Shown here: positions 932 to 51,673 of the stretch, one piece after another
Position numbering within the stretch: the stretch's first letter is position 1
Layout of the letters: the number at the start of each line of letters is the position of its first letter
NCBI GenBank assembly: GCA_034440575.1
Contig: JAOTOL010001568.1
Span: forward strand, 654,001-718,000
Origin: Imbricaverruca yamaguchii
Taxonomy: Eukaryota > Arthropoda > Thecostraca > Neoverrucidae
Direction of reading: 5' to 3'
Length of the DNA: 64,000 bases
Program-made: the position numbers and the translations under genes
The notes under the pieces: generated by a model
Told to the model about the DNA's origin: nothing
Seen by the model: only the letters and a program-made list of their open reading frames with translations
Databases searched by the model: none

Positions 932-1128
932 GTGCCAGTGTCCGGAGGGCTATCCGGGCCCAAACTGCCAAGGCGACACGGTCAATTTTGAGGGCACCGG
1001 GTACGCGTGGTTCCCACAGCTGACCGCCTGCGACGCGTCCCACCTGAGCTTCGACATCACCACAGCTGCTGATGAGGGTCTCGTCATGTACAACGGCCCG
1101 CTCTCGGAGCCGGTCGATTTTGTCCAGG
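932..1128 (+). CDS. Cadherin exon a: EGF end and start of LamG
   Basis: The acceptor is ...TTCTGTGCACAG at 931. The exon enters in phase 1 and encodes [12 protein letters not shown] (second half of an EGF module) and then the first strands of a LamG domain ([32 protein letters not shown]). It ends in phase 1 at CCAGG followed by the consensus donor GTGAGT. This donor is also the first unit of the 46-bp array that fills most of the intron. Confidence 0.88.
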
Positions 1129-4100
1129 GTGAGTGGCGACGGGTAGTGCACACATCACCTCACCTCTGTCCAGGGTAAGCGGCGGCGGGTGGTGCACACG
1201 TCACCACACTTCTGTCGATGGTGAGTGGCGACGGGTGGTACACACGTCACCTCACCTCTGTCGATGGTGAGTGGCGACGGGTGGTACACACGTCACCACA
1301 CCTCTGTCGATGGTGAGTGGCGACGGGTGGTACAGACATCACCACACCTCTGTCGATGGTGAGTGGCGACGGGTGGTACACACGTCACCACACTTCTGTC
1401 GATGGTGAGTGGCGACGGGTGGTACACACGCCACCTCACCTCTGTTGATGGTGAGTGGCGACGGGTGGTACACACGTCACCACACTTCTGTCGATGGTGA
1501 GTGGCGACGGGTGGTGCAGACATCACCACACCTCTGTCGATGGTGAGTGGCGACGGGTGGTACACACGTCACAACACCTCTGTTGATGGTGAGTGGCGAC
1601 GGGTGGTACACATCACCTCACCTCTGTCCAGGGTAAGCGGCGGCGGGTGGTGCACACGTCACCACACCTCTGTTGATGGTGAGTGGCGACGGGTGGTGCA
1701 CACGTCACCACACCTCTGTCGATGGTGAGTGGCGACGGGTGGTACACACGTCACCCACCTCTGTCGATGGTGAGTGGCGACAGGTGGTACACACGTCACC
1801 ACACCTCTGTCGATGGTGAGTGGCGACGGGTGGTGCGTCACACACCTCTGTCATGGTAGTGGCGACGGGTGGTAATCACCACACCTCTGTCGATGGTGAG
1901 TGGCGACGGGTGGTACACACGTCACCTCACCTCTGTCGATGGTGAGTGGCGACGGGTGGTACACACGTCACCCACCTCTGTCGATGGTGAGTGGCGAGGC
2001 ACTGTGAGGTGTGGCACACGTCACCCACCTCTGTCGATGGTGAGTGGCGACGGGTGGTCACACCTCTGTCGATGGTGAGTGGCGACGGGTGGTGCACACG
2101 TCACCACACCTCTGTCGATGGTGAGTGGCGACGGGTGGTACATCACCACACCTCTGTCGATGGTGAGTGGCGACGGGTGGTGCACACGTCACCACACCTC
2201 TGTCGATGGTGAGTGGCGACGGGTGGTACACACGTCACCACACCTCTGTCGATGGTGAGTGGCGACGGGTGGTACACACGTCACCACACCTCTGTCGATG
2301 GTGAGTGGCGACGGGTGGTGCACACATCACCTCACCTCTGTCCAGGGTGAGTGGCGACAGGTGGTACACACGTCACCACACCTCTGTCGATGGTGAGTGG
2401 CGACGGGTGGTACAGACATCACCACACCTCTGTCGATGGTGAGTGGCGACGGGTGGTACACACGTCACCACACCTCTGTCGATGGTGAGTGGCGACGGGT
2501 GGTACACACGTCACCACACCTCTGTCGATGGTGAGTGGCGACGGGTGGTGCACACGTCACCACACCTCTGTCGATGGTGAGTGGCGACGGTGGTACACAC
2601 GTCACCACACCTCTGTCGATGGTGAGTGGCGACGGGTGGTACACACGTCACCACACCTCTGTCGATGGTGAGTGGCGACGGGTGGTACACACGTCACCAC
2701 ACCTCTGTCGGAGTGGTGGACTGGAGTGGCGGGTGGTGCACACGTCACCACACCTCTGTCGATGGTGAGTGGCGACGGGTGGTGCACACGTCACCACACC
2801 TCTGTCGATGGTGAGTGGCGACGGGTGGTGCACACGTCACCACACCTCTGTCGATGGTGAGTGGCGACGGTGGTACACGGTGGTGAGGGCACACGTCACC
2901 ACACCTCTGTCGATGGTGAGGTGGCGACACGTCACCACACCTCTGTCGATGGTGAGTGGCGACGGGTGGTACACACGTCACCACACCTCTGTCGATGGTG
3001 AGTGGCGACAGGTGGTGCACACGTCACCACACCTCTGTCGATGGTGAGTGGCGACGGGTGGTGCACACGTCACCACACCTCTGTCGATGGTGAGTGGCGA
3101 CGTTGGTGGTGAGGCACACGTCACCACACCTCTGTCGATGGTGAGTGGCGACGGGTGGTGCACACGTCACCACACCTCTGTCGATGGTGAGTGGCGACGG
3201 GTGGTGCACACGTCACCACACCTCTGTCGATGGTGAGTGGCGACAGGGTGGTACACACGTCACCACACCTCTGTCGATGGTGAGTGGCGACGGGTGGTAC
3301 ACACGTCACCACACCTCTGTCGATGGTGAGTGGCGACGGGTGGTACACACGTCACCACACTTCTGTCGATGGTGAGTGGCGACGGGTGGTACACACGTCA
3401 CCACACCTCTGTCGATGGTGAGTGGCGACGGGTGGTACACACGTCACCACACCTCTGTCGATGGTGAGTGGCGACAGGTGGTACACACGTCACCTCACCT
3501 CTGTCGATGGTGAGTGGCGACAGGTGGTACACACGTCACCACACCTCTGTCGATGGTGAGTGGCGACGGGTGGTACACACGTCACCACACCTCTGTCGAT
3601 GGTGAGTGGCGACAGGTGGTACACACGTCACCACACCTCTGTCGATGGTGAGTGGCGACGGGTGGTACACACGTCACCACACCTCTGTCGATGGTGAGTG
3701 GCGACGGGTGGTACACACGTCACCACACCTCTGTCGATGGTGAGTGGCGACAGGTGGTACAGACATCACCACACCTCTGTCGATGGTGAGTGGCGACGGG
3801 TGGTGCACACTCACCTCTGTCGATGGTGAGTGGCGACGGGTGGTACACACGTCACCACACCTCTGTCGATGGTGAGTGGCGACGGGTGGTACACACGTCA
3901 CCACACCTCTGTCGATGGTGAGTGGCGACGGGTGGTACACACGTCACCACACTTCTGTCGATGGTGAGTGGCGACGGGTGGTACACACGTCACCACACCT
4001 CTGTCGATGGTGAGTGGCGACGGGTGGTACAGACATCACCACACCTCTGTCGATGGTGAGTGGCGACGGGTGGTACACACGTCACCACACCTCTGTCGAT

Positions 4101-7100
4101 GGTGAGTGGCGACGGGTGGTCACACGTCACCACACCTCTGTCGATGGTGAGTGGCGACGGGTGGTACACACGTCACCTCACCTCTGTCGATGGTGAGTGG
4201 CGACGGGTGGTACACACGTCACCACACCTCTGTCGATGGTGAGTGGCGACGGGTGGTACACACGTCACCACACCTCTGTCGATGGTGAGTGGCGACGGGT
4301 GGTCACACGTCACCACACCTCTGTGATGAGTGGGGGGGGTGGTACACACCCATTGTCGATGGTGAGTGGCGACAGGTGGTATACACGTCACCTCACCTCT
4401 GTCGATGGTGAGTGGCGACGGGTGGTACAGACATCACCACACTTCTGTCGATGGTGAGTGGCGACGGGTGGTACACACGTCACCACACCTCTGTCGATGG
4501 TGAGTGGCGACGGGTGGTACACACGTCACCTCACTTCTGTCGATGGTGAGTGGCGACAGGTGGTATACACGTCACCTCACCTCTGTCGATGGTGAGTGGC
4601 GACGGGTGGTGACACGTCATCTCGCCACTTCACCCCAGCTATGAGAGTGGGCGGCAAGATGGCAGCGTTTGCATATGCCCGTCGATAATGGGCAAGAAAA
4701 GTGTTTATCGTCCGCTCTGTCATTCACTGTTGACACGTCGGGTTTACATAACTACAACTGCCCTTGTGACAATGCGTGGGCAGGGAGGATGGATGCACGT
4801 GGGTTGAGCCAGCTGCATACCAGACGACAATCCGCGACATGAGTATAAGTCAGCTGCTGATGCTGAATCGACTCAATGATCGGTGAATACAATGCGTATT
4901 GCGTCACTGGCGAAAGGCGGTGCTCGCATTAATAAACGGTACCAGCCAAATAATGAACGAAAACTGGGATAATTATTGGTTAGTTGGTTAGTTATTAGGG
5001 CTTTAGGGCACACATAACTAACCAACTAACCTTCTCACGGCTGGTATATATCTGTTGTGCAGACTTCTTCGCGGTGGACATGCTGGACGGCAGGTTGCGA
5101 GTGTTTATGAACTACGGCACGGGCACGGTGGTGGCCAGTCCCCAGCTGAAGGTCAACGATGGTCTGCGACATCATGTCGACATCACGTGGGACCCCGAGG
5201 TAAGTGCGGTCGTCGGCTGCCTGTGCTCCACGTGATCGCACAGCATGCGTGTGCGGTGCCGTTTCATTACGTACTCACGTGCTGTTTCTCTATCGATTGT
5301 ATGCAGTTAATTCGTAGGACATTGCATGTACGTACATACAACGGCCCAAAGCATGCCATTATGCCCCTTATGTGACCCCGTTGCCTCTTCGTCGGTACTG
5401 TATATCCAGGTGCTGGTGCTGGTGGGCGGTTAGGTAAACTTTATGTAACCCCGTGACCCCTGACGGTGCCGTATCCCCGACAGACAGTACTGGTGGACAG
5501 CTGGGTGCCCGTGACCCCTGACGGTGCCATATCCCCGACAGACGGTGCTGGTGGATGGCTGGGTACCCGTGACCTCTGATGGTGCCGTACCCCCCGACAG
5601 ACGGTACTGTGGACGGGTACCCGTGACCTCTGACGGTGCCGTATCCCCGAGAGACGGTGCTGGTGGATGGCTTCGTACCCGTGGCCCCTGACGGTGCCGT
5701 ATCCCCGACAGACGGTACTGGTACTGGTGGACAGCTGCGTCACCGGCGCCAACTGCCAGTCATCAGTGGTGGCGCCGGCAGCGCCCGGCGGCCAGAAGAA
5801 CGCCTTCCTGAACGTGGTGACGCCGCTGCAGCTGGGCGGCTCGGCGGTGCCACTGGACCGGGTTAAGCAGTTCATGTCGTGGCAGCATGTGCCCGGCTGG
5901 GGCGGCTTCGTGGGCTGTCTGCAGAACATGACTTTCCTGGACCGAGTGTTCGACCTGAGCGAGCCGGCGGCCGGCACCGGCCACAGTCGCTTCTGCTCCG
6001 AGGCGGTGAAAGCCAAGCCTGTCATCGAGACCACTACCAGCTTCCTGGCCGTCATCCTCATCTGTCTGGCCGTCCTGTGCTGTGAGTGGCGGGCCCCGTG
6101 GCATGGGTGTGGCGTAGACGGGTGGCAGGGCCTGGACAAAGTATAGACGACTTTTCACAACTGCGGTGTAAATCAGAGACAAATCCCGGGTGCGGTCTGA
6201 CCTCATCCAGTATTGCCATGTCACGGCGTAATAAGCCTCAATGTGCTTAGCTACCCCCATATTTTGCTTGTTCCAAGCATTGGTGCTGTTCACGAGGGAT
6301 TGGGTTTGGACTTGATTATGCTTAGTTTGGAACATGAAGTGCCTTCGATGGTAATAATGCAAGTGAGGTGATGATTAATTATCGTAAAGATGGATTCTAG
6401 GACAGATGTACGTAAGGACAAATGTACTTATGGCAGATGTACGTAGGAAAATGTACGTAAGCGCAGATATACGTGTGGCTAATGTACGTAAGCGCAAATG
6501 TGCGCATGGAAAGCGTACGTGTGCGTAAATGTACTTATGCGCAGAAGTACGTAAGCGCAAATGTACGTATGCGCAAAAGTACGCATGCCCAAATGTATAT
6601 AAGGGCAAATGTACGTGTGCGCAAAAATACGTAAGCCCAAATGTACGTAAGCGCTATAGCACGTATGCACAAGTGTACGTATACGTGAATGTATGTATGT
6701 ACAATTGTACGTATGCGCAAATGTACGCGAATTTACTCATACGCACCTTCGGGCTTATGTACATTTGGTTAGGTACATATGTCATACGTACATTTCCAGT
6801 AACCGGACAAATGTACCTACGGAAATGTACGAAGGCAAGTGTACGTAAGCACAGATGTACGTATGGCAAATGTACTTATGTGTAAATGTACGTATGACAA
6901 ATTTTTGTATGCAAAAGTACGTACGCGCAAACGTACGTATGCGGAAATGTACGTAAGCGCAAAGGGACGTATGTACAAATGTACGTATTTGTTCATGTAG
7001 GTCTGCGCAATTGTACGTATGCGCAAATGTACGTCCATTTGCGCATACGTACCTTTGGGTTTAAACACAGTTGGTTAGGTGCATATGCCATACCTAGATG

Positions 7101-10100
7101 TGTGGTAACCGGACAAATGTACGTACGGAAATGTACGCAAGTACGTACGTATGACAAATGTATGTAAGCACAAATGTACGTAAGCGCAAAAGTACGTGAG
7201 CGCAAACGTTCGTAAACGTAAATGTACGTAAGCGCAAATGTGCGTAAGCGCAGCAGTACGCAAGCGTAAAGGAATGCAAGAGAAAATGTGCATATAAGCC
7301 GGTGTACGTACATTTAGGTATACATTCCTTTGCGTTTAAGCGGAGTTGGTTCGGTGCATACACAGTAGGAACATTTGTTCTTACGTATGTTTGCGCGTAC
7401 GGACTTTTGAGCATACGTGCATGTGCGCTTATGTACATTTGCACTTGCGTACATTTGCGCTTATATACTTTTGTGTTTACGTACCTTTGCGCATACGTAC
7501 ATTTGCGCTTACGTACATTTGCGCATACGCACTTTTGCGTTGACGCACATTTGCGTTTACGTGCATTCACCATACGTACATACGTACATTATCCTCGCGT
7601 ACATCTGTGCTTACGTACAATTTTCATATGTACATCTGCGCTTACGTACATTTGTTTACGTATATTTCCGTTCAAACATCTGCCATACGTAAATTGTATG
7701 TACGTACATTTGTCCGGTTATCGTAAATATGCAATGAGGCGAGCAAGAATGGGTCGGTTTTGCGAAGAGGGCTTGCGTAAGCTGGTTGTGGGAAGTTAGA
7801 TGCTTGGTGTGGTTAAAAAGGCGCGACATGTTATGCGACCTTCTTGGTATGATGCCTCTGTCTCGGTTGCTACAGCCCTTCACCACAGCCCGCACCCTAT
7901 CACTGCTGATGTCGCTGAGCACAGCCCGTGTCCATCTGTGCCGGTGTCCCTCTGTGCTGGTGTCTCTGACAACAGCCCGTGCCCCTCTGTGCTGGTGTCT
8001 CTGACAACAGCCCGTGCCCCTCTGTGCTGGTGTCTCTGACAACAGCCCGTGCCCCTCTGTGCTGGTGTCTCTGACAACAGCCCGTGCCCCTCTGTGCTGG
8101 TGTCTCTGACAACAGCCCGTGTCCCTCTGTGCTGGTGTCTCTGACAACAGCCCGTGACTCTCTCTGCTGGTGTCTCTGACAACAGCCCGTGCCCCTCTGT
8201 GCTGGTGTCTCTGACAACAGCCCGTGCCCCTCTGTGCTGGTGGTGCCCCTCTGTGCTGGTGGTGCCCCTCTGTGCTGGACAACAGCCCGTGCCCCTCTGT
8301 GCTGGTGTCTCTGACAACAGCCCGTGCCCCTCTGTGCTGGTGTCCTTGACCCACAGCCCGTGTCTCTCTCTGCGGGGTGTCCCTGACCCAGTGATAATAT
8401 TGTTGTTTTTCGTTAGATGCGAAGTGTCTAAACGAGTATAGTAGGATGTTGAAATTTGCTGTGGAAGCAATGTTGCTGAACACGTTCTTCCAACAAGGTT
8501 TTGATCCAACAGCGTAGTTATACGTGTGCCTTTTTCACTTTTTGCCAGATGCCTAATTCAGGGATAACTATTTTAGCGTTAACCGTGCAAAATACTTATG
8601 CTTGGCAATTTATTTTCTATTACATGTTACACCATAAATAACACCTTACACCATACATACCATATATCGTCTTATACCATGGTCCTCTCAACTGGAATTA
8701 TGTCAAAAGATGTTCTTGATCGTGTTATAGATGTAAATTTATCATGATCCGCAATTATGAGTGTAAGAATGATACTTACCAACGCCATGCTGCTAGAAAT
8801 TAAACGTAAAGACATCATGAAGACTTATCACGGGGCACGATGTCGATAATTATTTGGAAGGGATGGCGATTCAGTGTTCAGAAAGTGGTATATTCCACCT
8901 TGTTTCACGAATAATTTGTAACTGTCCTGGTCACAACCATTGTCCCTTTGTGCGGTTGTCCCTGACCACGGCCAATATATCTATGCTGGTGTCCCTGACA
9001 ACAGCCCGCGTCTCTCGATGCGTGTGTCCCGGATCAGTGAATGTCCCTTTTTGGTGGTGTCCCTGACCACAGCCCGTGTCCCTCTGTGCTGGCGTCCCTA
9101 ACAACAGCCCGTGTCCCTCTGCGGGTGTCCCTGATCACAGCCCGTGTCCCTCTGTGCTGACGTCCCTAACAACAGCCCGTGTCCCTCTGCGGGTGTCCCT
9201 GATCACAGCCCGTGTCCCTCTCTGCTGGTGTTCCTGACCACAGCCCGTGTCTTTGTCCTGGTGTCCCTGATCACAGTCCATGACCTTCTGTGCTGGTGCC
9301 ACTGACAGCAGCCCTTGTACCTCAGTACTGGTGTCCGTGACAATAGCCTGTGCTCCTCAGTACTGGTTCTGGCAGTCATTGTGTATCGGAGGCGGCGTGT
9401 ACGGTCGCTCTACAAGGAGCCGTCTGACGAAATGCGCGACACCATCATCAACTACGACGACGAGGGCGGTGGCGAGAAGGACCAGACAGCGTACGACCTG
9501 AGCGTACTTCAGGTGGCCAATGGTCTGCCCAGTGAGTATGATTCAGTTTGGCAGATACCTGTGGTCGTCACCCTATCAACGCCTACCGCACAGCTGTGGC
9601 CAGACACAACTGGTGGCTTTATCTACCTTAGTTTTTATGTCGGTGACGTATTTACTTCTACTTCGACACGTGCGTGATATATGAAAGTGCGGCTGGTTTC
9701 GGCCGTGGTTGTTCGGTGTTGCGAGTGTATTGTGGGAAGGAGGCTTGATAGAGGTGGGTTCGACAGGACCTTCCGTAGGGAAGCTGTCCAAGCGACGCTG
9801 ACCGCCGAGTAGCGTATCGGAACTCACCCACTCATGTTTCGTAGATGCCCTTCCCATGACGATTAGCACCAAACTGGAGCAAGTCATTCGAAGTCATACG
9901 CTATCATCCTCTCCGCTGTCGTATGCCACATACATATAGGTCATTTCGCACTAGGTAGGCAGAGAACGATTCAATTTGTCGAAAACGGACGCTTCCCATA
10001 GATTGCTCTTGGTTTTTGTTTCCTTCCGGGTTCTCCGAACAGCCTGGTTTTTCCCTTTCAGGTTTTTCCCAAGCTCTAACTTAAACATGCACCTCCACAT

Positions 10101-12546
10101 TCGAGGTCGGGTCTGACGCCCACGACTCACCTTGGGCGTCGGACCTGCGCGCTTCGTTCCAGGTCGCAGGTGGCCAGCGGAGCCTGCCCGGAGGCTGTAA
10201 TGCTGTCCACCTTCCAAGCGTTCTACCGTTAAATATGTATGTGTGTGTGTGTGCGTATATACGATTTGTGTACCGACTATTGCCACACCACATTTGCGCC
10301 ATTATGTCAGTCAAGTTCTTATTCATAATCTCATTATTTCCAAGTTTATGATGCGAAACAACTAACTAACTAGGCACCCATGCAAGACTAGTGCCCTTGC
10401 TATTCGCATGAACTTCTGGCAAAGTTTTAAATAATGCATATCTGTGCAAGTGATATTCGTTCCCACACCGTACGTGTTACCCTGTGTTTAAGGATAACGC
10501 AAGACAGTTTTCCACAGGTGGTACGGCTAAGAACCCCACTCAGTGTTGGCCCGTACAATCAATTACACTTAGCCATACGGTGTGGAAAGGTCTGGCGATT
10601 TCCACCCCCTCTTCCGCGACATCCATAATTATTGAGATCTTACTGAAGCCAGGTCTGTTGTTTGCTGCCAAGTTATTTTTCATCTCACCTCTCAAGCCTC
10701 ACCAAATCAACGACTGTCCCGCACCCCCGGAATAACGTCGTCCTCAGTTCGGACATCTGTGATGCGGGTTTCAGTTCCGCTTTGCATATCTCGGAGATGC
10801 CGGTCTCGCATAGCACACGTGGCCTCTCCCTCTACTACCTAACACCTGAAATGGCAGGTGAGTCTGGTGGTAGCGATGTGACTTGACTTGCTCGTCTCTC
10901 GCCTGCAGAGGAGAACAGCCGGCCAGCCGGGCAGACGCCCGGCCAGCCGCCGTCCGTGCGGAACTTCATCGACGATAACAAGAGCCAGATGGACAAGGAG
11001 CAGCAGGTGTGGCCGGCAGACGACGTGAGAAACTACGCCTACGAGGGCGGCGGCAGCTCAGCTGGCTCCCTGTCGTCGCTCAACTCGGGTACGTGTGCTG
11101 TGTGTCGCTCAGCTCGGGTACGTGTGCTGTGTGTCGGTCAGCTCGGGTACGTGTGCTGTGTGTCGCTCAGCTCGGGTACGTGTGCAGTGTGTCGCTCAGC
11201 TCGGGTACGTGTGCTGTGTGTCGGTCAGCTCGGGTACGTGTGCTGTGTGTCGCTCAGCTCGGGTACGTGTGCAGTGTGTCGCTCAGCTCGGGTACGTGTA
11301 CAGTGTGTCGCTGAGCTCGGGTACGTGTGCTGTGTGTCGCTCAACTTGGGTACGTGTGCTGTGTGTCGCTCAGCTCTGGTTCGTGTGCTGTGTGTCGCTC
11401 AACTTGGGTACGTGTGCTGTGTGTCGCTCAGCTCGGGTTCGTGTGCGTGTGTCGCTCAGCTCGGGTACGTGTGCTGTGTGTCGCTCAACTCGGGTACGTG
11501 TGCTGTGTGTCGCTCAGCTCGGGTACGTGTGCTGTGTGTCGCTCAGCTCGGGTACGTGTGCTGTGTGTCGCTCAGCTCGGGTACGTGTGCTGTGTGTCGC
11601 TCAGCTCGGGTACGTGTGCTGTGTGTCGCTCGGCTCGGGTACGTGTGCTGTGTGTCGCTCAGCTCGGGTCGTGTGCTGTGTGTCGCTCAGCTCGGGTACG
11701 TGTGCTGTGTGTCGCTCAGCTTGGGTACGTGTGCTGTGTGTCGCTCAACTCGGGTACGTGTGCTGTGTGTCGCTCAGCTCGGGTACGTGTGCTGTGTGTC
11801 GGCTCAACTCGGGTACGTGTGCTGTGTGTCGCTCAGCTCGGGTACGTGTGCTGTGTGTCGCTCAGCTCGGGTACGTGTACTGTGTGTCGCTGAGCTCGGG
11901 TACGTGTGCTGTGTGTCGCTCAACTTGGGTACGTGTGCTGTGTGTCGCTCAACTTGGGTACGTGTGCTGTGTGTCGCTCAGCTCGGGTACGTGTGCTGTG
12001 TGTCGCTCAGCTCGGGTACGTGTGCTGTGTGTCGCGATTGCCACAGCGTGACTGTGGGCCGATTGTTGTCACAGCCGGAATGTTTGGCCACCACTCGCAC
12101 CTCCGACAAATCGTTATGTTAGTGGTGCAGTTGCTGGACAGGCTTGCTGATCTTTGTTGGGTGGGATAGCCGAGCCAGTCAACACTAGGTGAAAATAAAT
12201 AGCTTGGTGGTGCCTGAATTGTCCGTTTCCGTGAGTATACAGCTGTCGATTTATATGTCCATCTGTTGATGATTTAATGTAGATTGTCTCTCGTCGACGT
12301 AAATTGTCGTTGTCTCGTCGAACACCGATCGTCACTGATCGTCTCGTTTCTCATTATATTCTGACAATAACTCATCTCCTGACAGGCACCGACGACAACG
12401 ACCTAAACCTGGACTGTCTGAACGAATTCGGGCCTCGGTTCCGGAAGCTTGCCGACATGTACGGCGGCGGTGAGGACGAGGACGAGGACGAGCCGGCGCC
12501 ACCTGCCGGATGCCGCTCGTCGCTGGCGGGAGAGTCCTGGTGCTAG
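932..12546 (+). CDS. Classical cadherin, C-terminal part (EGF-LamG-TM-catenin-binding tail), six exons
   Basis: Joined exons are 932-1128, 5063-5199, 5712-6081, 9361-9531, 10909-11088 and 12386-12546. Each junction is GT-AG and the phases (1,0,1,1,1) chain without error into 404 codons and a TAG stop. In order: the end of an EGF domain ([12 protein letters not shown]), a laminin-G domain ending in GCLQNMTF, a transmembrane helix split by intron 3, a basic stop-transfer run (YRRRR), the p120-binding juxtamembrane core ([12 protein letters not shown]) and the beta-catenin-binding region ([32 protein letters not shown]). This is the non-chordate classical cadherin plan (Drosophila shotgun or CadN type). 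It mediates homophilic adhesion and links to actin through catenins. The cadherin repeats must lie upstream of the window. The tail ends in an acidic run and GESWC. I cannot decide between the E- and N-type arthropod paralogues. Confidence 0.93.
1120..4615 (+). repeat. 46-bp minisatellite made of the exon-a 5' splice site (about 75 copies)
   Basis: The consensus unit begins GTGAGTGGCGACGGGTGGTA, continues CACACGTCACCACACCTC and ends TGTCGATG. Unit one is the real junction TTTTGTCCAGG|GTGAGTGGCGACGGG. Unit two still reads CTCTGTCCAGG|GTAAGCGG. Later units become TGTCGATG|GTGAGT. Almost every copy therefore keeps a near-consensus donor. Internal variants include T/C at CACTTC or CACCTC, GACAGG for GACGGG, a few short or rearranged units at 1840-2060, 2710-2900 and 4320-4370, and ACAGACATC for ACACACGTC. 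Length is not a multiple of 3, and retention of the intron meets a stop in the second unit. Confidence 0.97.
4616..5062 (+). other. Remainder of cadherin intron 1, with a perfect hairpin near the acceptor
   Basis: No gene seen. The segment holds an 18-bp perfect inverted repeat, GGTTAGTTGGTTAGTTAT (4978-4995) and its complement (5014-5031), with an 18-nt loop, TAGGGCTTTAGGGCACAC. Read on the minus strand it resembles the short-tandem tail of the non-LTR family at the window start (GCCCTAAA...AATAACTAACCAAC). It ends 31 nt before the exon-b AG. Confidence 0.7.
5063..5199 (+). CDS. Cadherin exon b: middle of LamG
   Basis: The acceptor is ATATCTGTTGTGCAG and the donor is GAG|GTAAGTG. Joined in phase 1 to exon a it restores a GAC codon and reads [21 protein letters not shown], then [18 protein letters not shown]. 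These are the central LamG beta-strands (the 'DGxWHxVxI' position is DGLRHHVDI here). It ends in phase 0. Confidence 0.9.
5456..5745 (+). repeat. ~58-bp tandem repeat of the exon-c 3' splice site (5 units; the last is the real acceptor)
   Basis: Each unit reads CCTGACGGTGCCGTATCC then CCGACAG|ACGGTRCTGGTGGAYRGCTGG. The last unit is the true acceptor and first codons of exon c (5712). Decoy acceptors fall at 5484, 5542 and 5601, plus a CGAGAG variant at 5654. The copies at 5484 and 5601 are in frame with exon c but run into TGA within the array. Exon sequence as well as intron sequence was duplicated. Confidence 0.92.
5712..6081 (+). CDS. Cadherin exon c: LamG end, stalk, first half of TM helix
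   Basis: It starts in phase 0 after GTATCCCCGACAG. It encodes [15 protein letters not shown], a linker, then the LamG C-terminus with the paired-cysteine motif [12 protein letters not shown] short membrane-proximal stalk (residues like [18 protein letters not shown]) precedes the first half of the transmembrane helix ([14 protein letters not shown]). It ends in phase 1 before GTGAGTGG. An intron inside the transmembrane helix is unusual but gives a clean helix when joined to exon d. Confidence 0.92.
6395..7725. repeat. GTACGTA/GCGCAAATGTACGTA foldback repeat in cadherin intron 3
   Basis: The core is a 15-16-bp degenerate motif, (A)AATGTACGTAWGCGCA. It runs in one orientation from 6395 to about 7300 and in the opposite orientation (TACGTACATTTGCGCTTA) from about 7305 to 7720, so the transcript could fold into one long imperfect hairpin. 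A second-order cassette, CCTTTGGGTTTAAACACAGT with GGTTAGGTGCATATGCCATAC, recurs near 6745, 7045 and 7325 (spacing 275-300 bp). AACCGGACAAATGTAC follows it at about 6796 and 7108, with its reverse complement at about 7700. The open frames on both strands are repeat artefacts. It may be a foldback-type transposon. Confidence 0.8.
7868..8395 (+). repeat. 35-bp minisatellite related to the exon-d 3' splice site, distal block
   Basis: About 14 units of CAGCCCGTGCCCCTCTGTGC followed by TGGTGTCTCTGACAA. The unit aligns to the real exon-d acceptor (AATAGCCTGTGCTCCTCAG|TACTGGT), so CTCTG|TGCTGGT in the array corresponds to CTCAG|TACTGGT at the splice site. Confidence 0.9.
8396..8927 (+). other. AT-richer intron spacer between two blocks of the 35-bp array
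   Basis: No gene and no clear repeat seen, apart from short ACACCATA-type repetition around 8625-8665. Confidence 0.5.
8928..9372 (+). repeat. 35-bp minisatellite, proximal block ending in the real exon-d acceptor
   Basis: More diverged units of the 35-bp array (TGTCCCTGACCACAGCCCGT, CCCTCTGTGCTGGCG). Near its end the units converge on the real splice site. The unit at about 9300-9335 reads ACCTCAG|TACTGGTGTCC, and the following one is the true acceptor, CTCCTCAG|TACTGGTTCTGG, at 9361. A decoy acceptor therefore sits exactly 35 bp upstream and out of frame. Confidence 0.88.
9361..9531 (+). CDS. Cadherin exon d: TM end and p120-catenin-binding juxtamembrane domain
   Basis: Phase-1 joining gives a Leu codon and completes the helix (LVLAVIVY). 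Then follow the basic anchor [17 protein letters not shown], the conserved p120-binding core [13 protein letters not shown] and TAYDLSVLQ. The donor is CCCA|GTGAGTATG. This block is diagnostic for a classical cadherin rather than a protocadherin or neurexin. Confidence 0.95.
9532..10908 (+). other. Cadherin intron 4 (no splice-site array)
   Basis: The only cadherin intron here without a junction-derived array. It holds short dispersed repeats, a small (GT)n run near 10236-10256 and an ACTAACTAACTAGG tail-like sequence near 10362. No gene seen. Confidence 0.6.
10909..11088 (+). CDS. Cadherin exon e: linker and start of beta-catenin-binding region
   Basis: The acceptor is TCGCCTGCAG. Phase-1 joining gives KENSRPAGQ. 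The linker [16 protein letters not shown] resembles the FIEE/FLND-type segment of invertebrate cadherin tails. Then comes [21 protein letters not shown], the serine-rich core whose phosphorylation strengthens catenin binding in this family. It ends in phase 1 at AACTCGG|GTACGTG. Confidence 0.94.
11072..12036 (+). repeat. 29-bp minisatellite made of the exon-e 5' splice site (about 33 copies)
   Basis: The unit is TCGCTCAGCTCGGGTACGTG followed by TGCTGTGTG. The first unit is the real exon end (TCGTCGCTCAACTCGG|GTACGTGTGC), so each copy repeats the last 13 or so exon bases and the donor GTACGT. Variants are AACTTGGG, GTGCAGTG, GTGTACAG and rare one-base indels (11438-11450, 11668). The Cys/Val-rich frames reported across it are not exonic. 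Confidence 0.97.
12386..12546 (+). CDS. Cadherin exon f: C-terminal catenin-binding tail and stop
   Basis: The acceptor is CATCTCCTGACAG. Phase-1 joining completes [16 protein letters not shown] and [12 protein letters not shown], the most conserved beta-catenin contact of classical cadherins (usually NFDYLNEFGP, with L and C here). An acidic run (EDEDEDE), PAPPAG and a C-terminal GESWC precede TAG at 12544. Confidence 0.95.
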
Positions 12547-13858: not shown

Positions 13859-13861
13859 ATG

Positions 13862-15951: not shown

Positions 15952-15953
<2 letters not shown>
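14739..15953. other. Unique intergenic DNA with one 28-bp micro-insertion
   Basis: No gene seen. At 15579-15606 a short CCCTTAAACCCAAGTAATCA-type segment is flanked by a perfect 10-bp duplication, TGGATGATCA (15569-15578 and 15607-15616). It looks like an extremely 5'-truncated non-LTR insertion. Confidence 0.6.

Positions 15954-16031
<78 letters not shown>
15954..16031. repeat. (AT)n microsatellite
   Basis: About 39 uninterrupted AT dinucleotides, self-complementary and able to form a cruciform. Confidence 0.97.
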
Positions 16032-20986: not shown

Positions 20987-23900
20987 CGCCTGTGTGATGG
21001 GTGGACCCTCCTGTGTGATGGCTGGACCCTCCTGTGTGGTGGGTGGACCCACCTGTGTGGTGGGTGGACCCGACTGTGTGTTAGGTGGACCCTCCTGTGT
21101 GGTGGGTGGACCCGCGTGTGTGGTGGCTGGACCCTCCTGTGTGGTGGGTGGACCCGCGTGTGTGGTGGCTGGACCCTCCTGTGTGGTGGGTGGACCCTCC
21201 TGTGTGATGGATGGACCCGACTGTGTGGTGGGTGGACCCTCCTGTGTGGTGGGTGGACCCGCCTGTGTGGTGGGTGGACCCGCCTGTGTCATGGGTGGAC
21301 CCTCCTGTGTGGTGAGTGGACCCGCGTGTGTGATGGCTGGACCCGCCTGTGTGGTGGGTGGACCCGCCTGTGTGTTAGGTGGACCCTCCTGTGTGGTGGG
21401 TGGACCCTCCTGTGTGGTGGGTGGACCCTCCTGTGTGGTGGGTGGACCCGCCTGTGTGGTGGGTGGACCCGCCTGTGTGGTGGGTGGACCCTCCTGTGTG
21501 GTGGGTGGACCCGCCTGTGTGGTGGGTGGACCCGCCTGTGTGGTGGGTGGACCCTCCTGTGTGGTGGGTGGACCCTCCTGTGTGGTGGGTGGACCCGCCT
21601 GTGTGGTGGGTGGACCCGCCTGTGTGGTGGGTGGACCCGCCTGTGTGGTGGGTGGACCCTCCTGTGTGGTGGGTGGACCCTCCTGTGTGGTGGGTGGACC
21701 CGCCTGTGTGGTGGGTGGACCCTCCTGTGTGGTGGGTGGACCCTCCTGTGTGGTGGGTGGACCCTCCTGTGTGGTGGGTGGACCCTCCTGTGTGGTGGGT
21801 GGACCCTCCTTTTGTACTTGTTTCCTGTGTGTGGTGGACCCTCCTGTGTGGTGGGTGGACCCGCCTGTGTGGTGGGTGGACCCTCCTGTGTGGTGGGTGG
21901 ACCCGCCTGTGTGGTGGGTGGACCCTCCTGTGTGGTGGGTGGACCCGCCTGTGTGGTGGGTGGACCTTCCTGTGTGGTGGGTGGACCCTGTGTGGTGGGT
22001 GGACCCTCTGCCTTGTTGGTGGGTGGACCCGCCTGTGTGGTGGGTGGACCCGCCTGTGTGGTGGGTGGACCCTCCTGTGTGGTGGGTGGACCCGCCTGTG
22101 TGGTGGGTGGACCCTCCTGTGTGGTGGGTGGACCCTCTGTGTGGTGGGTGGACCCTTTTCCTGTGTGGTGGGTGGACCCCTTTTGTGGACCCTGTGTGGT
22201 GGGTGGACCCGCCTGTGTGGTGGGTGGACCCTCCTGTGTGGTGGGTGGACCCTCCTGTGTGGTGGGTGGACCCTCCTGTGTGGTGGGTGGACCCGCCTGT
22301 GTGGTGGGTGGACCCGCCTGTGTGGTGGGTGGACCCCTGTGTGGTGGGTGGACCCGCCTGTGTGGTGTGGTGGACCCGCCTGTGTGGTGGGTGGACCCGC
22401 CTTGTTGTGGGTGGACCCTCCTGTGGGTGGGTGGACCCCCTGTGTGGTGGGTGGACCCTCTGTGTGGTGGGTGGACCCCTGTGTGGTGGGTGGACCCTCC
22501 TGTGTGGTGGGTGGACCCGCCTGTGTGGTGGGTGGACCCTCCTGTGTGGTGGGTGGACCCTCCTGTGTGGTGGGTGGACCCGCCTGTGTGGTGGGTGGAC
22601 CCTCTGTGTGGTGGGTGGACCCTCCTGTGTGGTGGGTGGACCCTCCTGTGTGGTGGGTGGACCCGCTGTGTGGTGGGTGGACCCGCCTGTGTGGTGGGTG
22701 GACCCGACTGTGTGGTGGGTGGACCCGCCTGTGTGGTAGGTGGACCCTCCTGTGTGGTGGGTGGACCCGCCTGTGTGGTGGGTGGACCCGCCTGTGTGGT
22801 GGGTGGACCCTCCTGTGTGGTGGGTGGACCCTCCTGTGTGATGGGTGGACCGGCCCAGTGGGTGGACCCGACTGTGTGGTGGGTGGACCCGACTGTGTGG
22901 TGGGTGGACCCGCCTGTGTGGTAGGTGGACCCTCCTGTGTGGTGGGTGGACCCGCCTGTGTGGTGGGTGGACCCGCCTGTGTGGTGGGTGGACCCGCCTG
23001 TGTGGTGGGTGGACCCGCCTGTGTGGTGGGTGGACCCTCCTGTGTGGTGGTGGACCCGCCTGTGTGGTGGGTGGACCCGCCTGTGTGGTGGGTGGACCCG
23101 CCTGTGTGGTGGGTGGACCCTCCTGTGTGGTGGGTGGACCCGCCTGTGTGTGTGTGGTGGGTGGACCCTCCTGTGTGGTGGGTGGACCCTCCTGTGTGGT
23201 GGGTGGACCCTCCTGTGTGGTGGGTGGACCCGCCTGTGTGGTGGGTGGACCCGCCTGTGTGGTGGGTGGACCCGCCTGTGTGGTGGGTGGACCCTCCTGT
23301 GTGGTGAGTGGACCCGCCTGTGTGGTGGGTGGACCCGCCTGTGTGGTGGGTGGACCCGCCTGTGTGGTGGGTGGACCCTCCTGTGTGGTGGGTGGACCCT
23401 CCTGTGTGGTGGGTGGACCCTCCTGTGTGGTGGGTGGACCCCTGCTGTGTGGTGGGTGGACCCGCCTGTGTGGTGGGTGGACCCGCCTGTGTGTTAGGTG
23501 GACCCTCCTGTGTGGTGGGTGGACCCTCCTGTGTGGTGGGTGGACCGGCCTGTATGGTGGGTGGACCATCCTGTGTGGTGGGTGGACCCTCATGTGTGGT
23601 GGGTGGACCCTCCTGTGTGGTGGGTGGACCCGCCTGTGTGGTGGGTGGACCCTCCTGTGTGGTGGGTGGACCCGCCTGTGTGGTGGGTGGACCCTCTGTG
23701 TGGTGAGCTGTGTGGTGGGTGGACCCTGTGTGGGTGGTTGGTGGTGGCCGCCTGTGTGGTGGGTGGACCCGCCTGTGTGGTGGGTGGACCTCCTGGTGGG
23801 TGGACCACCTGTGTGGTGGGTGGACCCCCTGTGTGGTGGGTGGACCCGCCTGTGTGGTGGGTGGACCCGCCTGTGTTGTGTGGTGGGTGGACCCTCCTGT

Positions 23901-40600: not shown

Positions 40601-40632
40601 TGACCATGCCTGACCACCACCAACCCGCGCAG

Positions 40633-40850
40633 ACGGTGGTCGCTGTTCCGGTCGCTGAGCTTGCGGGGCTGGTCGGGACGCGTGGAGCAGCTGGCGCGCA
40701 GCTCCCAGCGCCCGGAGCGGCTGGCCGGCGGAAGTGGTCGGCAGCACTGTCAGTCGGAGACCAACACTCACCGCGCAACCATGCTGACCAGCGTTAACGT
40801 AGGCCTCGGCAGGAGGCTCGTTCGCAACTGGAAGGACAAGGCCAGGTCAG
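40633..40850 (+). CDS. Kcnip: KChIP variable N-terminal exon (tentative)
   Basis: The acceptor-like tract is CACCAACCCGCGCAG and the donor is AGGTCAG|GTGAGTCGG. The end phase (1) fits the EF1 exon. The frame is very basic (RWSLFRSLSLRGWSGR, then GRRLVRNWKDKARS) with no conserved domain. That fits the known variable, alternatively started N-termini of KChIPs. An in-exon ATG at 40781 (MLTSVNVGLG) could be an alternative start. Confidence 0.5.
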
Positions 40851-43800
40851 GTGAGTCGGTCGCCATCGACAGGAAGTCGGGTGTAGCGTGCTGCGAAGTG
40901 TCAAGATAACTAACAATTGACAAGTGACGTGTATGGTGTCAGGCAATGAGACTCACTCGCCAGGGAGTGAGCTTGAGGCCGGCAACATACCGGCTGACTT
41001 TGTCCTCGAACTGTCCATGGAGCCTCACGCGCGTCATCTCAGAGGTGGTCTGTGGAGGCACGCACGCGTCACCTCACCAGGGGTTTGTGGAGGCACTCCC
41101 GTGCCACCTCAGCAGGGGTCTGTGGAGGCACTCCCGTGCCACCTCAGCAGGGGTCTGTGGAGGCACTCCCGTGTCACCTCAGCAGGGGTCTGTGGAGGCA
41201 CTCCCGTGTCACCTCAGCAGGGGTCTGTGGAGGCACTCCCGTGTCACCTCAGCAGGGGTCTGTGGAGGCACTCCCGTGTCACCTCAACAGGGGTCTGTGG
41301 AGGCACGCGCGGGTCACCTCAGCAGGGGTCTGTGGAGGCACTCCCGTGTCACCTCAGCAGGGATCTGTGGAGGCACTCCCGTGTCACCTCAGCAGGGGTC
41401 TGTGGAGGCACTCCCGTGTCACCTCAACAGGGGTCTGTGGAGGCACTCCCGTGTCACCTCAGCGGGGGTCTGTGGAGGCACTCCCGTGTCACCTCAGCAG
41501 GGGTCTGTGGAGGCACTCCCGTGTCACCTCAGCAGGGGTCTGTGGAGGCACACCCGTGTCACCTCAGCAGGGGTCTGTGGAGGCACTCCCGTGTCACCTC
41601 AGCAGGGGTCTGTGGAGGCACTCCCGTGTCACCTCAGCAGGGGTCTGTGGAGGCACTCCCGTGTCACCTCAGCAGGGGTCTGTGGAGGCACTCCCGTGTC
41701 ACCTCAGCGGTGGTCTGCGGAGGCACTCCCGTGTCACCTCAGCAGGGGTCTGTGGAGGCACTCCCGTGTCACCTCAGCAGGGGTCTGTGGAGGCACTCCC
41801 GTGTCACCTCAGCAGGGGTCTGTGGAGGCACTCCCGTGTCACCTCAGCAGGGGTCTGTGGAGGCACTCCCGTGTCACCTCAGCAGGGGTCTGTGGAGGCA
41901 CTCCCGTGTCACCTCAGCGGTGGTCTGCGGAGGCACTCCCGTGTCACCTCAGCAGGGGTCTGTGGAGGCACTCCCGTGTCACCTCAGCAGGGGTCTGTGG
42001 AGGCACTCCCGTGTCACCTCAGCAGGGGTCTGTGGAGGCACTCCCGTGTCACCTCAGCGGTGGTCTGTGGAGGCACTCCCGTGTCACCTCAGCAGGGATC
42101 TGTGGAGGCACTCCCGTGCCACCTCAACAGGGGTCTGCGGAGGCACTCCCGTGTCACCTCAACAGGGGTCTGCGGAGGCACTCCCGTGTCATCTCAGCGG
42201 TGGTCTGTGGAGGCACTCCCGTGTCACCTCAGCAGGGGTCTGTGGAGGCACGCGCGGGTCACCTCAGCAGGGGTCTGTGGAGGCACTCCCGTGTCACCTC
42301 AGCAGGGGTCTGTGGAGGCACGCGCGCGACTCGAATGCATGTTCTCGTTCGGTTCCATGCGCACGCTCGCTGCAGGTAGAAAAGAAAAACAAACGATTTG
42401 AGTATTTGGCCGCTATGTCATTAGCAACGCTAATCTCTCACGTCTATTGATCGTGGGTGGTGAACGGCGACAGGTGAGATTCGAACCCACAACCTTTAGG
42501 TTCCGAGACTGATATCTAACTCCCAGACCACTTCATCCCTGCTATGTGTATTGTGACTTGATTTCATTTGATAGCCTACACAACGCACATGTCTACATAT
42601 ATGAATGCGTCAATCATTTGATATATTTTTTTACTTAAGTCCACGACAGACCATGCAAATGACCTTCGATGGGAACAATCATAAACATTTGTAATGGACT
42701 GCGGTTATATATACATGATACTACTTCAAAACATACTCACAAAGTAAATACATAGCTTCATGTAATGTCAATCTGTATTGGCGGTGCAAACAGGGTCACC
42801 TTCAGAGGTCACAATGCACGTTCTAATTATAATTACATGAGGTTATTTGTGCAAGTTCACATAAATAAGTATTTTGCCTTCATTTTCCAAAATAAAGATG
42901 AAGAATGATCTAATTGAAATTAACGCCGCAGAATTACCCTCCACACCAATTTTCTTCTTCTTCTGAGGTATGAGTGTGTTCAAATCTGACATTACTGGAT
43001 CGATTTGTTCTGGAAGGCCCCAGCTTTCATTTCGTTCTTCTTGATCCCGTCAATAAACATTGGCAAATGCATTTCTATGCACAATGTGAGCCGTTGTTCA
43101 CGAGGTCACTAACCTTTAGTCGGGATGGTCTATACTGCCCACTTGTTTGCCTGATGGATGATCTCAGTAACCACACCGATTTTCATTGAAATTCCTCAAA
43201 AATATACTTTGACATACATTTTTGGCCCATTGAGTCATTTCCATCCGATGTAATTAGGTAGAAAGCTACGAAATGATGGATTGAAATTCGATTTGCCCGA
43301 TGGACAATCTACGAAAGTAATCTACAAAATTGCGCCAAATACACACTAATCAATGTCTTTTCACCGTATTAGATTAGCTGAGTCAGTTAAGAGAAAAAAT
43401 GACACTTGAAATATGAAGTAGACTCTTAACACGGAAATTAGTACAACCGTGAACCAAGCTTTCCGTCATTGTACAAATGTGTCACCCATCTTTAGTTCAA
43501 TTGTGATGCAATCCATATCTAATTGAGTTGTGATGTGATGGATGTCTACATTTCGTATGCTATGTTAACTACTTAAACTCATCTAATACCGTGAAAAACA
43601 TTGATTAGCGCGTGTTTGGCACAGTTCTGTAGCTTACTTTCGTGAATCGTACATCGGGAAAATCGAACTTCAACCCCTCATTTCGTGGCTTTCTACCCAT
43701 TTATATCGGCTGGAAATGACTCAAATGGCCAAAAATCGATGTCGAAGTTTATTTTAGAGCCATCTTCACGAAACTTGGTGCAATCGTCACTGAGATCGCC

Positions 43801-49800: not shown

Positions 49801-51673
49801 CCACAGTTCATGAAAAATAGCTCGAAGTGCAGGCAACATGTAGGATAGTCAGGATACCAACTTGATAGATGGGACAGAAGCAGCGTTGACTGGGCGACTA
49901 CTTCTTTATGATGAGGCGTCAACTGCCACGTTGACTAGGCGGCTACTTCTTGTGCAAACTGCCACGTTGGCTGGGCGACTGCCTTTTATGATTGCCTAGA
50001 CGCCAACTGTCACGTTAACTGGGCGTCTACTTCTTAATGATAAGACGCCGACTGTCATGCCTGTGACATCGATGGTTGATTTTCATCGTCACCAAAGATT
50101 TAGCAGTATTTGTCTGTTGCCTTTCGCTTTTCGAAAAATGAATTGCAGGGCACTTCCATGAGCCCACAATGGACCAGCTCTGGCCCTGCAGCGACACCAC
50201 TGTATCACACTACGAATGAACTCTAACCGCACTCTGATCCTCTTGTGGTCCCACTGTGACCTGGTGTGACCGCAGAGACGCCCAGCGATACCTGTGCCCC
50301 CACTGTGACCCGGCCTGATACCGCAGAGATGCCCGGCGATACCTGTGCCCCCACTGTGACCTGGTGTGACCGCAGAGACGCCCAGCGATACCTGTGCCTC
50401 CACTGTGACCCGGTCTGTGACCGCAGAGACGCCTGACGATACCTGTGCCCCCACTGTGACCTGGTGTGGCCGCAGGACACCCATCAATACCTGTGCCTCT
50501 ACTGTGACCCGGTCTGTGACAGCCGAGACGCCCGGCGATGCCAACGAGAGGTGTAGCAGGTATCGGCCAGGAGACCTGCACTCTCTGGCCACGTCCACCA
50601 AGTTCAGTCGACGTGAGATACAGAGCTTCTACCGCGGCTTCAAACAAGAGTGTCCCAGTGGCCACGTAGATGAAGAGAGATTTCGCGACGTCTACGCCAA
50701 GTTCTTCCCTTTTGGAGGTCTGTCAGTTGCTCGTGGGGGTAGTTCATGCCAGTGTCTGGAGTGAATTTATGGAACGCTGTTCATCTCGCTCGAGAAAAAT
50801 CTACTTTTAAGGTCATGTGGGGGTTAAAAGCACGCGTCCACAAAAAAATATGAGTGGGCAGGTGAAGTAAGGATAAAATTGTAGTGCTTTTCACATGCTC
50901 CAATCTTTGCCAGTATGGATCTAGTAAGGCCTTGGGCGGAAATTTGATGACTCTCAACTACCATCAGCCAGATATGATTGGATTTCCCAACAAAGGGAGC
51001 AGAATGGGCCTACCAGGCCCGCCAGATTGCCAGAATGCCAGACTCCCATACTGCCTGAGCCGACCGCCAGCCATGAGAGCAGACCGCGCCGTACTGCTAT
51101 GGTGAAATGTGCGCCGGGTAGTCCGAGGTTGAACGCCGACAAGTTCCTCTGATCGGTGGTGTCAACTTAGCGCTGTGTTTTCACCGCGGCTTCTTTATGG
51201 GTCTACTGCCAGATCCAAGGGGCGATAAAGAGGCAAATATTTTGCGAGCCGGGTAAAAAGGCTTCTTTATGGGTCTACTGCCAGATCCAAGGGGCGATAA
51301 AGAGGTAAATATTTTGCGAGCCGGGTAAAAAGGTACATGCTGAATCCAACCTTTGACATCAGACGCGTAAATCCAGTTATCTGATGATGCAGTCTATCTG
51401 GAGAGACATACATCATGAATTATTAAAAGTAATTCTAATGATTTATGTCATCCTTCAGTCCAGTGTTTTTTGCTTGGTGAACTTCTGAGTTGCTGTGAAT
51501 CTTCTGTGGTTGACGCCTGCCATCTGCGCTTCAGACTCGGATCAGTACGCACACTTACTGTTCAACGTGTTGGACAAGAATCAGACGGGCAGCATCTCGT
51601 TCGACGACTTCATCTTCGGTCTGTCAACCCTCATCAAGGGAAGCACGGAGGACCGTCTCGCCTGGACATTCAA
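40633..51673 (+). CDS. Kcnip: KChIP (Kv channel-interacting protein) type EF-hand calcium sensor, first three visible exons
   Basis: Exons 40633-40850, 50523-50717 and 51535-51673 join with matching phases (1 then 1) and GT-AG borders. The conserved part reads YRPGDLHSLATSTKFSRRE, then FYRGFKQECPSG, then DVYAKFFPFGD (degenerate EF1) and YAHLLFNVLDKNQTGSISFD with DFIFGLSTLIKG (EF2 loop DKNQTGSISFDD, Asp at position 12 as in KChIPs). It ends RLAWTF followed by an incomplete AA- codon, where the family continues NLYD. YAH.LFN and the RYRP start separate KChIPs from frequenin and hippocalcin. The family binds Kv4 channel N-termini, and some members also act as calcium-regulated repressors. EF3 and EF4 must lie beyond the window or be lost; no match is seen in the 12.3 kb to its end. 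Confidence 0.88.
41045..42338 (+). repeat. 36-bp minisatellite in the KChIP intron (about 36 copies)
   Basis: The unit is CACCTCAGCAGGGGTCTGTG then GAGGCACTCCCGTGT, with variants GCGGTGGTCTGCGG and GCACGCGCGG. It starts about 195 bp after the exon donor. Every unit carries an acceptor-like CCCGTGTCACCTCAG. The 36-bp period keeps all three forward frames open for 450-500 codons. These are not genes. Confidence 0.96.
42465..42543 (-). other. tRNA-like sequence (tRNA pseudogene or SINE head)
   Basis: The minus strand reads GCAGGGATGAAGTGGTCTGG and later GTTGTGGGTTCGAATCTCAC. That gives a B-box (GGTTCGAATC), a T-arm stem of five pairs (GTGGG/CTCAC) and an A-box-like TGAAGTGG at the expected spacing. 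The acceptor and anticodon stems are not convincing, so a functional tRNA is unlikely. Confidence 0.45.
42544..43144. other. AT-rich intron DNA, nothing supported
   Basis: No coding or repeat structure recognised. Confidence 0.4.
43145..43822. repeat. Large imperfect inverted repeat (arms ~240 bp, spacer ~180 bp)
   Basis: Left-arm words GATGATCTCAGTAACC, TTTTTGGCCCATTGAGTCAT, TAGAAAGCTACGAAATGA and CTAATCAATGTCTTTTCACC reappear reverse-complemented at 43565-43815 (GGTGAAA/CATTGATTAG, TCATTTCGTGGCTTTCTA, ATGACTCAAATGGCCAAAAA, GTCACTGAGATCGCCCATC). A partial extra copy of the terminal word (ACTGAGATCGTACATCGG) lies near 43961. A foldback MITE is the simplest reading. Confidence 0.8.
44632..45447. 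mobile_element. ~0.8-kb TTAA-type MITE with G-run termini
   Basis: The left end is TTAA-CCCGTCCCGTCTC followed by a G run. The right end is a C run followed by GAGACGGGGTGTGAGG. The inner 17 or so bases are inverted copies. The interior has TCAGGTCA and AAGGTCAAGTCAGGTCA words like the MITEs at 33.7 and 54.2 kb. The right TTAA is not preserved. Confidence 0.6.
45625..45768. repeat. 18-bp degenerate repeat (ATCATTGTCATGGACATC)
   Basis: About eight units making a frame of alternating Met/Ile/Val. Not a supported gene. Confidence 0.75.
45769..49875. other. KChIP intron interior, no gene seen
   Basis: Mostly unique. Four CAGTGGCGGATCCAAG-type words near 47729, 47752, 47815 and 47887 resemble stacked hAT termini, and there is a small (CAAA)n near 47642-47662. 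The 185-codon frame at 47183 has no recognisable domain. Confidence 0.45.
49880..50062. repeat. ~50-bp degenerate tandem repeat (4 copies)
   Basis: The unit type is GACTGGGCGACTACTTCTT with ATGATGAGGCGTCAACTGCC and ACGTT. Spacings are uneven. Confidence 0.75.
50240..50540 (+). repeat. ~50-bp tandem repeat of the KChIP EF1-exon 3' splice site (6 units; the last is real)
   Basis: Units read CACTGTGACCTGGTGTGACC then GCAG|AGACGCCCAGCGATACC and TGTGCCC. The final unit is the true junction, CACTGTGACCCGGTCTGTGACAG|CCGAGACGCCCGGCGATG. The repeat therefore includes the polypyrimidine/AG region and the first exon bases. Decoy CCGCAG sites precede each AGACGCC. Confidence 0.92.
50523..50717 (+). CDS. 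Kcnip: KChIP exon: conserved core start and EF1
   Basis: It opens in phase 1 (restoring Ala) with ETPGDANERCSRYRPGD, continues FSRREIQSFYRGFKQECPSG and ends DVYAKFFPFG in phase 1 before GTCTGTCAG, a weak donor. EF1 carries the CPSG sequence in its loop, which disables calcium binding throughout this family. Confidence 0.9.
51188..51331. repeat. 72-bp tandem duplication
   Basis: Two copies of GGCTTCTTTATGGGTCTACT...GCGAGCCGGGTAAAAA with one mismatch, just 200 bp upstream of the EF2 exon. Recent. Confidence 0.95.
51535..51673 (+). CDS. Kcnip: KChIP exon: EF2
   Basis: The acceptor is CCATCTGCGCTTCAG. Joined in phase 1 it gives GDSDQYAHLLFN, the EF2 loop DKNQTGSISFDD and GLSTLIKGSTEDRLAWTF. It ends with two bases, AA, before GTAAGAA; the family residue here is Asn, so the next exon should start with C or T. 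Confidence 0.92.

What the first reader, a model, noticed from the sequence alone, without database searches (positions are those of the whole stretch)
932..50717. Intronic minisatellites seeded by splice junctions in two unrelated genes
Five arrays (1120-4615, 5456-5745, 7868-9372, 11072-12036, 50240-50540) have the genuine exon-intron boundary as one terminal unit, so the tandem unit contains the splice site plus the last or first exon bases. Both polarities occur: two amplify 5' splice sites, three amplify 3' splice sites. In the cadherin 4 of 5 introns show it. Chance placement of minisatellites would not put unit boundaries on junctions this often. A replication- or R-loop-linked slippage centred on splice sites, or selection for decoy sites, are possible causes. 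Tandem duplication of AGGT-containing segments is a known route to intron creation, and this could be an extreme relative of it.
Basis: partly seen in the sequence, partly recalled or inferred. Interest (0 to 1): 0.9.

Follow-up and report, generated by a model that had tools for sequence, protein, structure and literature searches.

The report
Tandem arrays that copy splice junctions
In a barnacle genome crowded with short tandem repeats, arrays that include a real exon-intron boundary recur in unrelated genes, filling the intron with copies of a splice site; such arrays are known from amphioxus, and here they look mostly like tolerated by-products of a very high repeat density.

Summary
All five arrays contain a real splice junction in their exon-side unit: donors at window 1128 and 11088, acceptors at 5712, 9361 and 50523. 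The third "array" is two arrays split by unique DNA. Such arrays are already described in amphioxus as "mirages" (PMC3087553), so the kind is known. The genome is a barnacle near Pollicipes.

Outside the window I called 87 junctions (one cadherin gene, 14 kinase loci, three exons of other cadherin-type loci; none picked for repeats): 11 are mirages, 7 of 46 donors and 4 of 41 acceptors.

Is the junction a seed? Only weakly. Arrays cover 27% of the cadherin gene. Array edges overlap exons about twice as often as they fall deeper in introns (1.87 v 0.92 per kb, p=0.028; outside the window p=0.10). GC matching leaves no significant excess outside the window (9 seen, 5.6-7.7 expected). The 102 other arrays show no sense-strand splice-site bias. 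Likeliest: a high rate of GC-linked tandem duplication, tolerated because the exon-side copy keeps the exon intact.

The real puzzle is splicing: one intron holds 75 scored decoy donors whose median score equals the true site's.

The parts
932..1128 (+). cadherin exon; donor CAGG|GTGAGT after 1128
1121..4619 (+). 46-bp x 76.8 array containing the 5' splice site (5' mirage); 75 of 75 scored copies keep GT, median donor score equals the authentic 10.0
5063..5199 (+). cadherin exon, both junctions outside arrays
5450..5722 (+). 58-bp x 4.8 array containing the 3' splice site (3' mirage); 4 of 4 scored copies keep AG
5712..6081 (+). cadherin exon; acceptor CCGACAG|ACGG inside the array
7940..8387 (+). 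first of two related 35-bp arrays in the intron before exon 9361; not at a junction
8941..9367 (+). 35-bp x 12.5 array whose last unit holds the acceptor at 9361 (degenerate 3' mirage: 1 of 12 scored copies keeps AG)
9361..9531 (+). cadherin exon (transmembrane end and cytoplasmic start)
10909..11088 (+). cadherin exon; donor CTCGG|GTACGT after 11088
11075..12035 (+). 29-bp x 33.2 array containing the 5' splice site (5' mirage); 32 of 32 scored copies keep GT
12386..12546 (+). last cadherin coding exon
40781..40850 (+). first coding exon of a Kv channel-interacting protein (KChIP) gene; donor GGTCAG|GTGAGT
50250..50539 (+). 51-bp x 5.8 array whose last unit holds the acceptor at 50523 (3' mirage)
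50523..50717 (+). second KChIP coding exon

Best explanation
These are 'mirage' minisatellites: tandem arrays whose unit happens to straddle an exon-intron boundary. This genome duplicates short GC-rich segments in tandem at a very high rate (inferred from array density). When a duplicated segment spans a splice junction, the exon-side copy still provides the exon end and its splice site, so the duplication is tolerated and further copies grow into the intron by slippage or unequal exchange, which also keeps the units alike (inferred from anatomy). A duplication lying wholly inside an exon would change the protein and be removed, so arrays end within one unit of the exon edge. The spliceosome must then pick the exon-side site among many similar copies (inferred from protein continuity; no RNA was available). 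A modest extra preference for exon borders, at most about 2- to 3-fold, remains possible.
For: Array cover 21.5% of 264 kb, about 0.49 arrays per kb, 27% of the cadherin gene. Array-edge rate in deep intron rises with flank GC from 0.39 to 1.39 per kb, and exon edges are GC-rich; 0 of 29 exon edges under 58% GC have an overlapping array. In the 14 measured overlaps the array enters the exon by less than one unit. Copy number differs between near-identical loci: 3.3 v 7.7, 3.9 v 4.9 and 3.2 v 10.7 units at the same acceptors. L037 has arrays at both of its called donors; its relative L034 has none at the matching donors in the sequence held. Interior units are homogeneous (median 96.6-100% to consensus in 5 arrays tested). 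Splice-motif columns are conserved about as much as the rest. Unit length is a multiple of 3 in 2 of 10 donor arrays (one of the ten is at the doubtful donor 610317), so there is no sign of frame selection. The other 102 arrays have no sense bias for donors or acceptors.
Against: Over all 103 junctions, edges overlap exons more often than they fall deep in introns (2.03-fold, p=0.028), and a rough GC-matched expectation of 6.6-9.0 compares with 14 (p=0.008 to 0.075). Edges are also dense just inside the intron (2.65 per kb at 0-55 nt), so something about exon borders beyond GC may matter. The exon unit is clearly more diverged than the interior only in the 46-bp array (87%); in the other four tested it is 94-100%, so a general edge effect is not shown. 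Which copy is spliced is not shown.
Confidence: 0.67

Rival explanations
1. Junction-directed amplification: something tied to splicing or transcription at the exon border (R-loops, U1/U2 binding, a replication pause) makes the boundary itself a hotspot of tandem duplication.
For: Edge rate at the exon border 2- to 3-fold over deeper intron; 16 of 103 junctions, unrelated genes, both polarities.
Against: Rate just inside the intron is as high as at the junction (2.65 v 1.87 per kb); strong GC dependence; outside the window the excess is not significant, plain (p=0.10) or GC-matched (p=0.12 to 0.36); cadherin junction 30-mers are repeated less often (7 of 40) than random intronic 30-mers (758 of 3000); even the 13 junction arrays show only a non-significant sense-strand donor excess (p=0.15).
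Confidence: 0.15
2. Selection keeps the copies as decoy splice sites that regulate splicing or buffer the true site.
For: In 6 of 8 scored donor arrays (610317 left out as doubtful, L029 not aligned) the median decoy score equals the authentic donor's; GT kept in 75 of 75, 32 of 32, 6 of 6 and 9 of 10 copies in four of these six, and in 21 of 21 copies in L037 donor 1869.
Against: Motif columns are conserved about as much as the rest (for example 0.98 v 0.95, 0.96 v 0.97); AG is lost in 11 of 12 copies at acceptor 9361, GT in 15 of 73 copies in L032 and 4 of 10 in L038; copy number varies between near-identical loci.
Confidence: 0.05
3. Intron creation by tandem duplication of AGGT-bearing segments, the arrays being the leftovers.
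For: L032 has an intron at its mirage donor that its relative L031 lacks.
Against: The array touches only one end of each window mirage intron in the cadherin and the other junction has no copy (15-18 of 30 matches); gain or loss in L031/L032 is not resolved.
Confidence: 0.05
4. Assembly artefact: collapsed or expanded repeats misplaced at exon borders.
For: Long arrays are hard to assemble; near-identical inverted loci on contig C1415 could be misjoined haplotypes.
Against: Units differ from each other, arrays recur on several contigs, and three acceptors carry the array in both members of a near-identical pair. I had no reads.
Confidence: 0.05

Closest known systems
Amphioxus 'mirage' minisatellites (Adh, globin, TnC, PGBD5 genes; passages of PMC3087553 and PMC3902484 read; the 2002 Adh paper itself not held)
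   Same: Tandem units spanning an exon-intron boundary, at 5' or 3' boundaries, copies often with AG/GT signals, varying copy number, concerted evolution inside the array.
   Different: An arthropod here, not a cephalochordate; arrays of up to about 77 copies in the window; recurrent in a sample not chosen for repeats (11 of 87 junctions). Undisturbed mRNA is reported from RT-PCR in amphioxus, not tested here.
Intron gain by tandem duplication (Rogers model as cited in PMC3087553; human introns in tandem arrays recalled, not read)
   Same: Tandem repeats carrying splice signals inside a gene.
   Different: There both intron ends come from the same unit (recalled); here only one end does.

Membership tests
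mirage minisatellite | tandem unit spans an exon-intron boundary, with exon bases in the unit | tested here: met
mirage minisatellite | occurs at either 5' or 3' boundaries | tested here: met
   9 of 54 donors, 7 of 49 acceptors
mirage minisatellite | authentic exon is the outermost copy | tested here: met
   joined cadherin exons against a moth cadherin, KChIP against P. pollicipes, L032 against L031; by homology for these, not RNA; the other cases rest on frame and splice scores
mirage minisatellite | copy-number instability between haplotypes | tested here: inconclusive
   copy number differs in three near-identical pairs, which may be paralogs or haplotypes
mirage minisatellite | regular mRNA splicing despite the copies | not testable with these tools
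   no RNA data
intron gain by tandem duplication | both boundaries of one intron derive from the same repeat unit | tested here: not met
   the opposite junctions of the four cadherin mirage introns in the window have no copy (15-18 of 30)

The most novel reading that the evidence does not exclude
In barnacles the exon-intron border itself is a preferred site of tandem amplification, linked to transcription or splicing, so that roughly one junction in eight carries an array and the spliceosome routinely ignores dozens of equally strong copies.
Probability: 0.14. Interest if true: 0.8.

Novelty: new member of a known kind. Interest (0 to 1): 0.5.

Why it matters
The amphioxus mirages I read of were described gene by gene. 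A barnacle genome where about one in eight sampled junctions has one is a natural experiment on splice-site choice: an intron with 75 scored decoy donors whose median score equals the true one, in a conserved gene whose protein appears intact. It also makes the link between minisatellites and intron change testable with ordinary annotation and long-read RNA, and warns that gene predictors may pick the wrong copy.

Tried and rejected
Position test: cadherin junctions are repeated in 7 of 40 cases against 25% (758 of 3000) of random intronic 30-mers and 34% (778 of 2292) of positions 100-600 nt in. This speaks against a simple hotspot, although the control ignores selection on exons. First edge count (99 junctions, overlap zone 5-60 nt): ratio 3.16, p=0.0011; GC-matched 15 seen, 6.4 expected, p=0.003. 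I then dropped acceptor C1335:589129 (2.3 copies only, doubtful site), moved donor 610317 to 610287 (better cadherin spacing by my reading; the array then starts about 8 nt inside the intron) and added five KChIP junctions: ratio 2.03, p=0.028 with a zone of 5-80 nt, 2.59, p=0.006 with 5-60 nt. Three positions in these scripts are a base or two off (two KChIP donors, the L032 acceptor); none is near an array edge. Kinase sample: 52 junctions called out of 58 possible ends of the 29 hit segments in 14 loci, plus one further acceptor in L032; six uncertain ends were left out by hand. Upstream cadherin exons: of 10 pieces sent to Pfam, 3 matched the cadherin model (one below its cut-off), 1 the DE-cadherin Ig-like model, 1 a spurious-looking model, 5 nothing; the piece with donor 602460 is among the five. 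Eleven near-miss arrays (0-55 nt inside the intron) were tested as decayed mirages: one (L038 donor) clearly matched, L041 and one cadherin donor were weak, the other eight did not; of arrays further in, L049 matched. Reading through the decoys gave no clear frame pattern. A genome-wide count of triple donor motifs against a reversed control pattern never ran. Searches for prior reports in barnacles or other arthropods listed none on this subject (open-licence PMC papers only).

Full report
What was checked. The window is C1335:654001-718000 of an unnamed 767-Mb genome. A Kv channel-interacting protein gene in it is 83% identical to a Pollicipes pollicipes protein and 68% to one of Amphibalanus amphitrite over the aligned parts, so the genome is taken to be a barnacle related to, but not, P. 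pollicipes. The first gene is a classical arthropod cadherin: laminin G and the cadherin cytoplasmic domain in the window, and upstream a DE-cadherin Ig-like match and cadherin matches in 3 of 10 exon pieces tested. By coding score and frame it continues upstream to about C1335:531166.

The five arrays. Each contains a real splice junction in its exon-side unit. Donors: 1128 (46-bp unit, 76.8 copies) and 11088 (29 bp, 33.2). Acceptors: 5712 (58 bp, 4.8), 9361 (35 bp, 12.5) and 50523 (51 bp, 5.8). The cadherin joins are supported by alignment to a moth cadherin, 40% identity over 387 residues, with no gap at the joins that involve 5712, 9361 and 11088 and a one-residue gap near the join at 1128. 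The acceptor at 50523 rests on three things: the best, though modest, acceptor score nearby, phase agreement with the first coding exon's donor at 40850, and the aligned P. pollicipes protein.

Is it general? I called 87 junctions outside the window: 28 in the upstream cadherin, 53 in 14 kinase loci chosen only for holding at least two kinase-domain hits, and 6 in three cadherin-type exons chosen because they lie in a near-identical inverted pair. Mirages: 2 of 28, 6 of 53 and 3 of 6; in all 11 of 87, 7 of 46 donors and 4 of 41 acceptors. Examples: L032 donor 1607 (35-bp unit; the array runs 3.4 kb), L037 donors 894 and 1869, L029 donor 432, L038 donor 2856, L039 acceptor 1837 with 72 exon bases in a 110-bp unit, and the L049, L051 and L053 acceptors. 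Exon ends were called by reading frame, homology and approximate splice matrices, by hand where several sites competed; single calls may be wrong, and the sample is small and not random.

Is it more than chance? Arrays cover 21.5% of 264 kb. Counting the array edge nearest each junction, overlap with the exon occurs at 1.87 per kb, the first 55 intronic bases have 2.65 per kb and intron at 55-550 nt 0.92 per kb; overlap against deep intron 2.03-fold, p=0.028 (103 junctions). Outside the window alone: 1.82-fold, p=0.10 (87 junctions). With a narrower overlap zone: 2.59-fold, p=0.006, and 2.22-fold, p=0.053. A looser first set gave 3.16-fold, p=0.0011. Deep-intron edge rates rise from 0.39 to 1.39 per kb with flank GC. 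With those rates, 6.6 to 9.0 overlaps are expected in all and 14 are seen (p=0.008 to 0.075); outside the window 5.6 to 7.7 are expected and 9 seen (p=0.12 to 0.36); 0 of 29 exon edges under 58% GC have one. By plain position, cadherin junctions are repeated less than intron interior (7 of 40 against 758 of 3000). The other 102 arrays carry no sense-strand bias for donor-like or acceptor-like units, and the 13 junction arrays only a non-significant one. So exon borders are somewhat enriched, GC explains much of it, and splice motifs as such do not appear to seed arrays.

How it works. In most donor arrays the copies are as strong as the authentic site: the median equals it in 6 of 8 scored donor arrays, leaving out the doubtful donor 610317 (also equal) and L029, which could not be aligned. 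Motif columns are not specially conserved and interior units are uniform in the five arrays tested, as expected from recent homogenisation. Copy number differs between near-identical loci, and arrays at the same intron positions are present in L037 and absent in L034. In the 14 measured overlaps the arrays enter exons by less than one unit. I therefore favour tolerated tandem duplication across the border: shown are the anatomy, recurrence and copy-number difference; inferred are slippage or unequal exchange and the use of the exon-side site.

What is known. Such arrays were named 'mirages' in amphioxus, at 5' and 3' boundaries, with RT-PCR suggesting regular splicing, varying copy number and a suggested link to intron gain (PMC3087553, passages from the abstract and one section); a later paper adds PGBD5 and cites Adh and TnC (PMC3902484, one passage). 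The P. pollicipes genome paper reports WindowMasker masking of 18.5%, and the words tandem and satellite were not found in its main text (passages). My searches listed no report from arthropods, but they cover only open-licence papers. The kind is known; the host group and the frequency seem new.

Noticed in passing
L032 with L048 and L055 (C1187:262200-270299, minus strand) against L031: A 3.66-kb intron with a mirage at its donor is present in one kinase gene and absent from its close relative; sequence identity is 96% before and 79% after the intron site. Gain or loss is not resolved.
   Followed up: partly
C1415:3157517-3496485: Near-identical cadherin-type loci lie in inverted orientation on one contig: an inverted duplication or a haplotype misjoin.
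   Followed up: partly
window 6399-7652: Degenerate arrays of a 16-bp unit based on CAAATGTACGTATGCG, in both orientations, within one cadherin intron and not at a junction.
   Followed up: no
window 1-539: Fragment of a dispersed repeat with 40 further matches listed in the genome (only the best candidates were scored); its frame looks like the end of a retrotransposon polyprotein (from reading only).
   Followed up: no
window 60425-63120: Open frames that look like an LTR retrotransposon gag-pol (from reading only).
   Followed up: no
window 20987-24190 and 41033-42321: Long minisatellites not at any junction that I called (42-bp and 35-bp units); the second starts 182 bases after the KChIP first-exon donor.
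   Followed up: no
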